Source: an uncultured Hyphomicrobiaceae bacterium | GTDB lineage: Bacteria > Pseudomonadota > Alphaproteobacteria > Rhizobiales > CAMYJA01 | DNA: 64,000 bases | NCBI GenBank assembly: GCA_947258705.1 | Contig: CAMYJA010000007.1 | Span: forward strand, 12,074 to 76,073 | Direction of reading: 5' to 3' | Part shown: positions 24,908 through 58,548 of the stretch, one piece after another | Layout: every line of letters starts with the position of its first letter | Position numbering within the stretch: position 1 is the first letter of the stretch | Made by a program: the position numbers and the translations under genes | Notes under the pieces: model-generated | The model's input: only the letters and a program-made list of their open reading frames with translations | Databases searched by the model: none | Told to the model about the DNA's origin: nothing

Positions 24908-25037
24908 CAGCCGGCCGGTTGGGATATAATATTTAAATATATATTTCAGCCGGCCGGATCTTTGTCGCGCAACGACTGTTTCGTTGCGAGACCGAAGCCG
25001 GGCGATCAATCGCTTGTGACAAGTGACTTGTCACAAG
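24908..25037. repeat. cluster of inverted/direct repeats in a convergent intergenic region
   Basis: CAGCCGGCCGG direct repeat (24908-24918, 24947-24957); CGCAACGA-ctgtt-TCGTTGCG (24968-24988); CTTGTGACAAGT-g-ACTTGTCACAAG (25013-25037). Confidence 0.8.
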
Positions 25038-27692: not shown

Positions 27693-27720
27693 AGGCTAGG
27701 CTAGCCTAGGCTAGCCTAGG
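27693..27720. repeat. CTAG-rich self-complementary repeat
   Basis: AGGCTAGGCTAGCCTAGGCTAGCCTAGG; five CTAG tetranucleotides in 28 bp; overlaps the TetR stop codon. Confidence 0.85.
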
Positions 27721-55079: not shown

Positions 55080-56504
55080 TCAGGCTGAGACATTGAACCA
55101 GGTAAACATGCCGGACGCCGCATGCGACAGGATGTGGCAGTGCAATGCCCATTTGCCGGGATTGTCGGCGACAAAGGCGATGGATACTTTTTCGTTCCGT
55201 CTGACAAGTTCCGTATCACGCCAGGGCGCGTCGTTCACCGGTTTGTCGTTTCTGCGCACGACCTTGAAATGATGGCCATGCATATGCATGGGGTGGGGCC
55301 AGGCGGTGCGGTTGATCAGGTCGACGATAACCGTCTGTCCCTTTTTCACGTCAAAGAGCGGTTTCTCGGTCATTCCCACCTGGCCGTTGAAGGCCCAGAC
55401 CTGACCGGCGCCTACAAGCTGCCGGATATCCATATTCTCGCCCTTATAGGTCGCGTTCCGCATGCCGCCCATGGCGCCACCTTCCATCACCATTTCATAC
55501 CTTTCCACATTGTCGAGCGGCAACGCGTCAGGCAGCGGGTTGGGCGGCAGGTTGATGGGCTCGCGCCTGTGCGGCAGCTTCGCCTCACCCTCCGCAATAT
55601 TGAGAGAAGTCAGGGGCACCGGAAAATCCTGTGACACTTCGTCAAGAAACACCGTTTCCCCCGGGGAGCCTTCAACATTGATATCGAGATCGACCCGCTG
55701 CGCCGACGCCAGGGTTATCAATTTTCTGGTAGCGCCAATATGCGTTGCCGGTTGTCCGTCGATTGCGATCACCGAGGCTTTCCAATTGCCCAATATCAAG
55801 TTGAGAGTGCGGGCATTGCAGCAATTGACGAGCCGTAAACGCAGGCGCTCATTTTTTCCGACTGTATAGGCCGGCCTGTATTGGCCGTTAACCGTGGGCC
55901 AGTTGCCCAGGCGCCCTCCGTGGGACATCTCACCCATGTGTCCCAGGCTTTCTTCATGGATCTGGCCATCATTATCAAGTCTCCAGTCATCGATGACCAT
56001 GAGCAAATCGCGGTCGAATCCGGGGGATGTTTTTTCCTCGACAATGAGCGCACCATAGAGACCGCGCGCCACCTGTTCCCATGTCCGCTCGTGAGAGTGG
56101 TACCAGAATGTTCCGGCATCGGGCGCACGGAATACATAATCGAAGCTTGCACCGGGCGGTACCGGTTTTTGGGTCAGGCCGGGAACGCCATCCATGGCGT
56201 TGTCGCTGCGCAAGCCGTGCCAGTGGATGGTTGTCGGTTGCGGCAGTTTATTGACCAGACGGACCTTGACCAGCTCGTCTTGTTTGACGCGAATTTCGGG
56301 CCCCGGCGACATGCCCTGATAGGACCAGATTTTGGTGGGCAGCTTGTCCACTCCCCTCAGCTTGGCCTCGCCGGGTCTGGCTTCGAGTACAAGAAAGCCA
56401 TCCTCCCTCCCCTTGGCGCCGGCGGGCGTCATGGAACCTGGAGCCGTCAAAAATGCGCTGCCTGCAATGGCGGCAGTACCTTGCAAAAATTTACGTCGTT
56501 CCAT
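55080..56504 (-). CDS. multicopper oxidase (laccase-like, Tat signal)
   Basis: MERRKFLQGTAAIAGSAFL; TIHWHGL, FWYHSHERT, HPMHMHGHHF, ALHCHILSHAASGM. Confidence 0.93.
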   Translation of the reverse strand: MERRKFLQGTAAIAGSAFLTAPGSMTPAGAKGREDGFLVLEARPGEAKLRGVDKLPTKIWSYQGMSPGPEIRVKQDELVKVRLVNKLPQPTTIHWHGLRSDNAMDGVPGLTQKPVPPGASFDYVFRAPDAGTFWYHSHERTWEQVARGLYGALIVEEKTSPGFDRDLLMVIDDWRLDNDGQIHEESLGHMGEMSHGGRLGNWPTVNGQYRPAYTVGKNERLRLRLVNCCNARTLNLILGNWKASVIAIDGQPATHIGATRKLITLASAQRVDLDINVEGSPGETVFLDEVSQDFPVPLTSLNIAEGEAKLPHRREPINLPPNPLPDALPLDNVERYEMVMEGGAMGGMRNATYKGENMDIRQLVGAGQVWAFNGQVGMTEKPLFDVKKGQTVIVDLINRTAWPHPMHMHGHHFKVVRRNDKPVNDAPWRDTELVRRNEKVSIAFVADNPGKWALHCHILSHAASGMFTWFNVSA

Positions 56505-56614
56505 TACTCTTCAAATTGCCTTTCCATAGAAATGCTGCAATCGCGTATGGTATAATGGCGTTAAGTTGCATGACAAAAAAACACGTCCCTGCCTGCACAT
56601 GAACACAAGCGTTC

Positions 56615-56649
56615 AGTATTGACCTTCCTCCAACAGGAAGGTCAATACT
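56615..56649. promoter_or_regulatory. perfect palindromic MerR/CueR-type promoter-operator
   Basis: AGTATTGACCTTCCT-CCAAC-AGGAAGGTCAATACT; TTGACC -35 and AATACT -10 separated by 19 bp on both strands. Confidence 0.75.
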
Positions 56650-56697
56650 GCCGTCCGATCGACCAGACAGACTTTATCAGCCGCGAAGGAAAAAAGC

Positions 56698-57189
56698 ATG
56701 ATCGTCAACCGGTATTATCATTGGAAACGCGCCGCCGTGAATGGGCTCGGATTGCTAGCAGTCCTGGTTATCTCTTTTGGCACGGCCTGGACCATCCTTC
56801 CCTCAAGCAGTAAGGCCGAGGACATCAAGGTTTTCAAGAACAGCGGTTGCCAGTGTTGCGCGCGGTGGGCCGCGCAATTGCGCGCCAAAGGACATCATGT
56901 CACTGAAAAAGGCGTCCTTAACATGGATGCGATCAAGAAAATGTACAATGTGCCGGAGAAATTCGAGGGATGCCACACCGCACTCGTCGGCGGTTATGTC
57001 ATCGAAGGGCATGTCCCGTTAAGGGAGATCGAGCGGCTATTGAGAGAGCGCCCCGATGCCAAAGGCCTGGCCGTGGCCGGCATGCCCATGGGCTCGCCCG
57101 GAATGGAAGTCCCGGGCGAAAAACCAGATTCCTATGACGTCCTTCTATTAAAAAAGGACGGCACTTCGGAAGTGTATGCCAAATATTGA
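56698..57189 (+). CDS. DUF411 domain protein
   Basis: IKVFKNSGCQCCARWAAQLRAKGHHV...VPEKFEGCHTALVGGYVIEGHVPLREIERLL. Confidence 0.88.
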   Translation: MIVNRYYHWKRAAVNGLGLLAVLVISFGTAWTILPSSSKAEDIKVFKNSGCQCCARWAAQLRAKGHHVTEKGVLNMDAIKKMYNVPEKFEGCHTALVGGYVIEGHVPLREIERLLRERPDAKGLAVAGMPMGSPGMEVPGEKPDSYDVLLLKKDGTSEVYAKY

Positions 57190-57215: not shown

Positions 57216-57845
57216 TCAGGCCGCTGCCGAACGTTCCTCCGGCCAGGGCTCACGCCAGGCGTCGATTGCGCTGATCGTCCCGTACCAGCGCTGTAATTCA
57301 GAGCAGCCGTCGAGGGGAATATTTGCTTCCTCGGCATGGGGGAGGAATGACGCAATAGCAAAATCGGCAATGGTCAGGCTATCGCCCAGTATATAGCTTT
57401 TCCCATGCAAATGGTCGTCGAGCACGGTCGCGAATTGCTTGAAATATCCGGTCGCGTCGTCAATTTCGGATTGCACCGGATCGCCAAGACCGAATTTGGG
57501 TTTGATGACATTCTCGAAAAAAATCCGGCTGGCGTGACGTGAAAAATGTGCGGTATCCCAATTGAGCCACTTCATCACCTGTATCTGCTTGACCGGATCA
57601 GACGGCCACATGTCGGAACCGGCCTTGTAGGCCAGATAGGCCATGATTGCGTGGCTCTCCCATAATTTGACATCGCCGTCCTCAAGCGCCGGCACCCTGC
57701 CATTGGGATTGACGGCCAAAAAGTCCGGATTCTTTTGCTGACCCTCGGCAATATTGACATGGACATATTCAACGGGCGAATTCAGGTGTTTCGCGACGGC
57801 GCAGGGCTTATGGGAGTTCGGCGTTTCGAAGAAAAAAAGTTTCAT
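57216..57845 (-). CDS. glutathione S-transferase family protein
   Basis: MKLFFFETPNSHKPCAVAKHLNSPVEYVHVNIAEGQQKNPDFLAVNPNGRVPALEDGDVKLWESHAIMAYLA. Confidence 0.9.
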   Translation of the reverse strand: MKLFFFETPNSHKPCAVAKHLNSPVEYVHVNIAEGQQKNPDFLAVNPNGRVPALEDGDVKLWESHAIMAYLAYKAGSDMWPSDPVKQIQVMKWLNWDTAHFSRHASRIFFENVIKPKFGLGDPVQSEIDDATGYFKQFATVLDDHLHGKSYILGDSLTIADFAIASFLPHAEEANIPLDGCSELQRWYGTISAIDAWREPWPEERSAAA

Positions 57846-57892
57846 GACGGTCTCCTCAAAATTGGAATGAGAGAGAAGACTAGGTCCAATAT

Positions 57893-57916
57893 AAAATATG
57901 TTAAAGAACATATTTT
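57893..57916. promoter_or_regulatory. candidate TetR operator in the divergent GST/TetR intergenic region
   Basis: AAAATATGTT-AAAG-AACATATTTT, 10-bp perfect arms. Confidence 0.65.
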
Positions 57917-57957
57917 TCAGCTGGTATAGGATGACGAAAACCGCTGGAGGATAACAA

Positions 57958-58548
57958 ATGCCCTATGTTCCCGAACACAAGAAACGCACCCGCGCACGCA
58001 TACTGGAATGCGCCCGTCATCTTTTTAACCGACGCGGATTCACCGACGTGTCTATCGATGAAATAATGGCTTCGGCAGGTCTCACGCGCGGCGGCTTTTA
58101 CAATCACTTCAATACAAAGGAGGACCTTTACGCCGAATCCCTCCTGGCCTATGCGGAAAGCAATATGGTCAAAAGCATGAACGACGTGGCAGACGAAAAC
58201 GATCTGGCGTGGCATATCATCGATCAGTATATCTCGCGCCAGCATCTCGAAAATCTAGACGATCACTGCCCGCTCATGGCCCTACCATCAGACGTCGCCC
58301 GTGCCGGCCCTCAGGCCAGAGCAGCCTATCAGAAACTTCTCGAAGCCCTCGTCGGTGTTTTTGAAATAAACCTCGCGCAGACAAATGGCGCCTCTCCACG
58401 CCAGCAAGCGTTGGCAATCGCGACGACCTGCGTCGGCGCAATGGTGCTGACACGAACAATCGACGATCAGGAACTGGAAGAAGAAATCTGCAAAGCCGCA
58501 CGCGTCTCTGCGGGCGCGGCGATGGGCAAGGTTCCGCAGGATGCCTAG
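57958..58548 (+). CDS. TetR family regulator
   Basis: KKRTRARILECARHLFNRRGFTDVSIDEIMASAGLTRGGFYNHFNTKEDLYAESL. Confidence 0.92.
   Translation: MPYVPEHKKRTRARILECARHLFNRRGFTDVSIDEIMASAGLTRGGFYNHFNTKEDLYAESLLAYAESNMVKSMNDVADENDLAWHIIDQYISRQHLENLDDHCPLMALPSDVARAGPQARAAYQKLLEALVGVFEINLAQTNGASPRQQALAIATTCVGAMVLTRTIDDQELEEEICKAARVSAGAAMGKVPQDA

What the first reader, a model, noticed from the sequence alone, without database searches (positions are those of the whole stretch)
56504..56698. Perfect 35-bp palindromic MerR/CueR-type promoter between a multicopper oxidase and a DUF411 gene
AGTATTGACCTTCCTCCAACAGGAAGGTCAATACT is a perfect inverted repeat. It has TTGACC (-35) and AATACT (-10) with a 19-bp spacer, as in MerR-family promoters, and a CueR-like ACCTTCC...GGAAGGT core. 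Because it is symmetric, the same -35/19/-10 arrangement reads in both directions, so one operator could drive both the Tat-type multicopper oxidase (start 56504, minus) and the DUF411 gene (start 56698, plus). No MerR regulator is visible in the window, so the activator would act from elsewhere. This would be a compact two-way metal (probably copper) response unit.
Basis: partly seen in the sequence, partly recalled or inferred. Interest (0 to 1): 0.72.

Follow-up and report, generated by a model that had tools for sequence, protein, structure and literature searches.

The report
Two-way CueR-type copper promoter
A single mirror-symmetric copper-switch site sits between two copper-handling genes that point away from each other, and its sequence could let one CueR-like sensor turn on both, whereas the known switches of this family work in one direction only.

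Summary
The element is real. Window 56614-56650, CAGTATTGACCTTCC-TCCAACA-GGAAGGTCAATACTG, is a 16-bp inverted repeat around an asymmetric 5-nt centre, so it is not a perfect 35-bp palindrome. It carries the CueR/HmrR signal (ACCTTCC-N7-GGAAGGT) and the same TTGACC-19-AATACT promoter on both strands, between a Tat-type multicopper oxidase (minus) and a DUF411 protein (plus) related to CopG (PDB 6wis). The regulator missing from the window exists elsewhere in the genome: one CueR over NCBIfam's cut-off, another just below it. Other convincing CueR-type sites in this genome read one way; one divergent pair there uses two separate one-way sites. Only one other complete two-way copy was found in an 85,462-species collection, in a Rhizobiaceae MAG. 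Its arms are identical, and it too sits between a multicopper oxidase and a divergent cytochrome c' gene, in a gap of about 110 bp. Most likely this is a symmetric CueR promoter serving both genes by turns; the evidence is sequence only, with no expression data. A 2026 paper (PMC12825309) concluded that MerR-family regulators block one direction at bidirectional promoters, so this site is a natural counter-test. New variant of a known kind.

The parts
56614..56650 (.). Inverted repeat, 16-bp arms around CCAAC: symmetric CueR/HmrR-type operator-promoter
56622..56642 (.). Core operator ACCTTCC-N7-GGAAGGT, identical to the CueR/HmrR signal
   Evidence: PMC1526738
56619..56624 (+). Plus-strand -35 TTGACC (towards DUF411)
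56644..56649 (+). Plus-strand -10 AATACT, 19-bp spacer; start expected near 56656 (inferred)
56640..56645 (-). Minus-strand -35 TTGACC (towards the oxidase)
56615..56620 (-). Minus-strand -10 AATACT, 19-bp spacer; start expected near 56608 (inferred)
55080..56504 (-). Multicopper oxidase, 474 aa, RRKFLQ Tat-like start, copper motifs HWHG / HMHGHHF / HCHILSH
56698..57189 (+). DUF411 / CopG-like protein, 163 aa, CQCC motif, N-terminal hydrophobic segment
   Evidence: PMC7558416
56547..56576 (-). Possible separate oxidase promoter TTGTCA-18-TACCAT in the leader (consensus match only)
56527..56556 (+). Promoter-like TAGAAA-18-TATAAT with extended -10 (TGGTATAAT), pointing through the operator to DUF411 (consensus match only)

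Best explanation
The element is a CueR/HmrR-type Cu(I)-responsive operator-promoter made symmetric over its whole length, so that it holds two superimposed promoters, one on each strand. One CueR dimer on the dyad would keep both 19-bp-spacer promoters silent and, with Cu(I), distort the DNA so that RNA polymerase can engage in either orientation. Each -35 overlaps the opposite -10 by 2 bp, so one polymerase binds at a time: the multicopper oxidase and the CopG-like protein would be induced together on average, from alternating firings of one switch. Shown: the sequence layout, gene identities, CueR candidates in the genome, and a second instance elsewhere. Inferred: CueR binding, copper response, and transcription in both directions.
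For: The core is identical to the published CueR/HmrR signal with a 19-bp spacer (PMC1526738). CueR proteins are in the genome: L016:10151-10558 scores 155.8 against a cut-off of 147.4, L019:4559-4963 scores 145.6; both match E. coli CueR structures best. Symmetry runs 8 pairs past the core, into both -10 boxes; clear one-way sites run 0-1. In this genome a divergent pair (VTT-domain gene / Rieske gene) is served by two opposed one-way sites at C13 9821 and 9873. The only other complete two-way site in the 85,462-species collection has the same 16-bp arms, including 6 bases the search did not fix, and fills a ~110-bp gap between a multicopper oxidase and a divergent cytochrome c' gene; that genome also encodes a CueR over the cut-off. 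Both window genes are periplasmic copper-handling types (PMC8456105).
Against: No expression, binding or start-site data. The -10 AATACT matches TATAAT at 4 of 6. The site is not conserved upstream of orthologous oxidases. At soxS/soxR the MerR-family SoxR activates one direction and blocks the other (PMC12825309), though there the reverse promoter does not have the 19-bp layout. Alternative promoter-like sequences lie in the gap. The MCO leader would be about 104 nt, longer than usual.
Confidence: 0.7

Rival explanations
1. One-way CueR promoter. Only one gene, most likely DUF411/CopG with its short leader, is activated by CueR; the extra symmetry reflects a tight operator or drift, and the oxidase uses another promoter, or is only repressed by CueR, as soxR is by SoxR.
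For: A TTGTCA-18-TACCAT match for the oxidase lies in the leader. One-way operation is the rule for known CueR sites, including E. coli copA and cueO. SoxR blocks the reverse promoter at soxR/soxS (PMC12825309).
Against: The symmetry reaches past the operator core into both -10 boxes, which a tighter operator does not need (inference). It recurs with the same outer bases at a second divergent oxidase locus. [quoted passage not shown]
Confidence: 0.2
2. A symmetric MerR-family promoter that is answered by a different regulator, such as the third metal-type MerR of this genome (L016:12943-13404, closest to mercury MerR), or mainly by another metal such as Ag or Hg.
For: That MerR lies in the same C13 copper cluster and scores best against mercury MerR, below its cut-off.
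Against: The operator core is the CueR/HmrR signal, and both neighbouring genes are copper types.
Confidence: 0.06
3. The repeat acts as an RNA hairpin, or is chance. A plus-strand promoter upstream would transcribe through it into DUF411 and the hairpin would act in the leader.
For: A promoter-like sequence with an extended -10 (TGGTATAAT) lies upstream on the plus strand, and the transcript would fold strongly, z -3.2.
Against: No terminator-like T tract, no Rfam match, single copy. Any long inverted repeat folds as RNA, so the z-score adds little. Chance expectation about 0.0015. It does not explain the exact CueR core and spacing.
Confidence: 0.04

Closest known systems
CueR/HmrR-activated promoters (E. 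coli copA and cueO; actP-hmrR)
   Same: Operator core, 19-bp spacer, TTGACC -35, copper genes downstream (PMC1526738)
   Different: Those are one-way: TTGACC at one end and a TA-starting -10 at the other. Here both ends carry TTGACC and AATACT.
Bidirectional promoters of Warman and colleagues (PMC12825309)
   Same: One promoter region engages polymerase in two opposed, mutually exclusive orientations
   Different: Theirs share one symmetric -10, with divergent starts usually 10-23 bp apart; here the two -10 boxes are at opposite ends and the starts would be about 48 bp apart, with the activator's dimer site in the middle.
SoxR at soxS/soxR (E. coli)
   Same: MerR-family regulator inside a bidirectional promoter
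   Different: SoxR activates soxS and blocks soxR; only the soxS side has a 19-bp spacer. Here both sides have it.
cutFOG operon of Rhodobacter capsulatus
   Same: Pairs a multicopper oxidase with a CopG/CutG (DUF411) protein under copper control (PMC8456105)
   Different: One operon and another control mechanism; here the genes diverge from a CueR-type site.

Membership tests
CueR/HmrR-regulated promoter | Dyad ACCTTCC-N7-GGAAGGT | tested here: met
   Exact match, 56622-56642
CueR/HmrR-regulated promoter | Operator inside a 19-bp spacer between -35 and -10 | tested here: met
   TTGACC-19-AATACT on both strands; the -10 is 4 of 6
CueR/HmrR-regulated promoter | A CueR-type regulator in the genome | tested here: met
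   One over the TIGR02044 cut-off, one 1.8 bits below
CueR/HmrR-regulated promoter | Cu(I)/Ag(I)-dependent activation by CueR | not testable with these tools
   Needs expression or in vitro transcription
Bidirectional promoter | Overlapping promoter elements on both strands so that polymerases exclude each other | tested here: met
   Each -35 overlaps the opposite -10 by 2 bp; sequence geometry only
Bidirectional promoter | A shared, self-symmetric -10 element | tested here: not met
   The -10 boxes are separate, 23 bp apart, so it works like, but is not, the published type
Bidirectional promoter | Transcripts observed in both directions | not testable with these tools
   No RNA data
CopG (DUF411) | DUF411 domain over the Pfam cut-off and CxCC motif | tested here: met
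   91.1 bits against 27; CQCC; 6wis at 1.8e-26
CueO / CopA equivalogs | Score over the NCBIfam cut-off | tested here: not met
   CueO 159.3 of 525, copper_res_A 175.4 of 478.95: same superfamily, not CueO itself

The most novel reading that the evidence does not exclude
A MerR-family activator works in both directions from a single dimer site: a fully symmetric CueR promoter gives copper-induced, mutually exclusive divergent transcription, an exception to the stated rule that MerR regulators block one direction, and it has arisen at multicopper oxidase genes in at least two lineages.
Probability: 0.55. Interest if true: 0.68.

Novelty: new variant of a known kind. Interest (0 to 1): 0.52.

Why it matters
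CueR acts as a symmetric dimer that reshapes DNA, so nothing in principle ties it to one direction, yet known targets are one-way and a 2026 study generalised that one direction is always blocked. This natural site separates the two ideas and gives a ready experiment. It also shows the price of symmetry: the second T of TTGACC and the first T of the -10 are mirror positions, so a perfect mirror must give one up; here it is the -10 base, giving AATACT. If it works, it is a compact metal-sensing unit with two outputs from one site.

Tried and rejected
Conservation at orthologous oxidase genes: not found in the 28 relatives whose oxidase frame I could place, of 29 fetched; a CueR-like site nearby was one-way or imperfect (L037, L044). 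Near-symmetric copies with up to 3 mismatches in 396 other genomes of the order: none. Class and phylum samples (386 and 399 genomes): 9 and 11 genomes with the long core; apart from the window only G255 has TTGACC at both ends, with weak -10s beside one copA-type gene. Viral contigs: none. Rfam: none. Terminator: no T tract, and the genes diverge. Literature: no two-way MerR-family activated promoter found, but the library holds open-access papers only. The 37-site pool includes weak matches that may not be real sites.

Full report
What is there. Window 56614-56650 reads CAGTATTGACCTTCCTCCAACAGGAAGGTCAATACTG: 16-bp arms around CCAAC. The centre is not symmetric, so 'perfect 35-bp palindrome' is wrong in detail (30 of 35 positions), but it is the strongest inverted repeat in the window and is expected about 0.0015 times by chance. 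It occurs once in the genome, even allowing 3 mismatches.

Promoter anatomy. Each strand reads TTGACC, 19 bp, AATACT. The published CueR signal is ACCTTCCC-(5)-TGGAAGGT with a 19-bp spacer, and HmrR is its alphaproteobacterial counterpart (PMC1526738). The plus promoter points to DUF411 (start 56698), the minus promoter to the multicopper oxidase (start 56504). Each -35 overlaps the opposite -10 by two bases, so two polymerases should not fit at once (inference from geometry).

The genes. The minus gene is a multicopper oxidase with all three Pfam domains, copper-ligand motifs and an RRKFLQ start; it falls well below the CueO and CopA-type NCBIfam cut-offs, and its best solved relatives are laccases and copper oxidases. 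The plus gene is DUF411 and matches PDB 6wis at 1.8e-26, which two papers name as Pseudomonas CopG, a periplasmic protein with a tetranuclear copper cluster bound through CxCC (PMC7558416, PMC8456105). The window protein has CQCC. The same papers report that CopG-type genes are often linked to oxidase genes.

The regulator. The genome has four MerR_1 proteins, none in the window. One (L016:10151-10558), directly after a heavy-metal P-type ATPase gene, passes the CueR cut-off; a solitary one (L019:4559-4963) scores 145.6 against 147.4. Both match E. coli CueR structures best. Which of them acts here is unknown.

One-way against two-way. The other convincing CueR-type sites of this genome carry TTGACC or TTGAGC at one end and a TA-starting -10 at the other, and point at copper-cluster or metal-type genes. 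At C13 9821 and 9873 a divergent pair, a VTT-domain gene and a Rieske gene, has two separate sites facing opposite ways. Among 37 sites pooled from this genome, relatives and E. coli, the run of mirror pairs beyond the core is 0-3 except in three: G540 (5), the window (8) and G150 (10 or more). The reason for the usual asymmetry is simple: the second base of the -35 and the first base of the -10 are mirror positions and both prefer T. The window pays with an A in the -10.

Second instance. TATTGACCTTCC-N7-GGAAGGTCAATA was found once in the 85,462-species collection (the tool may leave out the window's own genome or one very near it): a Rhizobiaceae MAG, JASJDO010000046.1. Its arms match the window through the outer CAG/CTG, six bases that the search did not fix. 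It lies in a gap of about 110 bp between a cytochrome c' gene (L030:1909-2364, minus) and a multicopper oxidase (L030:2475-3905, plus) that is 46% identical to the window's. In several relatives a cytochrome c' gene precedes this oxidase on the same strand (identified there by reading the sequence, not by a family search). The centres differ (TCCAACA and ATTTACT) and so does the partner gene. Shared descent or transfer of the element cannot be excluded. That MAG also encodes a CueR over the cut-off.

Rarity. None of 396 other genomes of the order has a copy within 3 mismatches. In class and phylum samples the long core occurs in 9 and 11 genomes; apart from the window only G255 has TTGACC at both ends, and its -10s are weak.

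What it means. PMC12825309 reports that at E. coli soxS/soxR the MerR-family SoxR activates one direction and blocks the other, and generalises this. Where both directions have the activatable 19-bp layout, the same distortion should serve both, in turn. No experiment here tests that. Alternative promoter-like sequences exist in the gap for both directions, so a one-way CueR promoter plus a separate oxidase promoter is the main rival.

Verdict. CueR-type operator-promoter: very likely (about 0.93, my estimate). Two-way activation: likely (about 0.7). New variant of a known kind; the novelty claim rests on a limited open-access literature search.

Noticed in passing
L064:1490-1540 (G540, same class): A second style of symmetric site, TAGACC..GGTCTA with TAGCGT/TAGCCT at the outer ends, between an MMPL-family gene (plus) and a divergent small membrane-protein frame; it keeps both -10 Ts and gives up the -35 T instead.
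   Followed up: partly
L016:6822-6894 (own genome C13:9821-9893): Two opposed one-way CueR-type sites 52 bp apart serve a divergent VTT-domain / Rieske pair: the ordinary two-site solution in the same genome.
   Followed up: yes
L016 (own genome C13:3000-22000): Copper-type cluster with a heavy-metal P-type ATPase, a CueR, a second multicopper oxidase, a MerR of mercury type and Met-rich small proteins.
   Followed up: partly
L080:1490-1540 (G255, same order): TTGACC at both ends of a CueR core beside a copA-type ATPase gene, but with weak -10s (AAGACT, AAGATG) and no clear gene on the other side.
   Followed up: partly
L044:2990-3040 (G360, same order): A multicopper oxidase and a divergent DsbA-like frame share one imperfect CueR-like site (TTGACCCTCC..GGAGGGTCCA).
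   Followed up: no
window 56547-56556: A plus-strand extended -10 (TGGTATAAT) inside the oxidase leader, antisense to it and pointing at DUF411 through the operator.
   Followed up: partly
window 25013-25037 and 27696-27719: Two other clean inverted repeats, CTTGTGACAAGTGACTTGTCACAAG and CTAGGCTAGCCTAGGCTAGCCTAG.
   Followed up: no
window 57216-58548: Next to the unit, a glutathione S-transferase (minus) diverges from a TetR-type regulator (plus).
   Followed up: no
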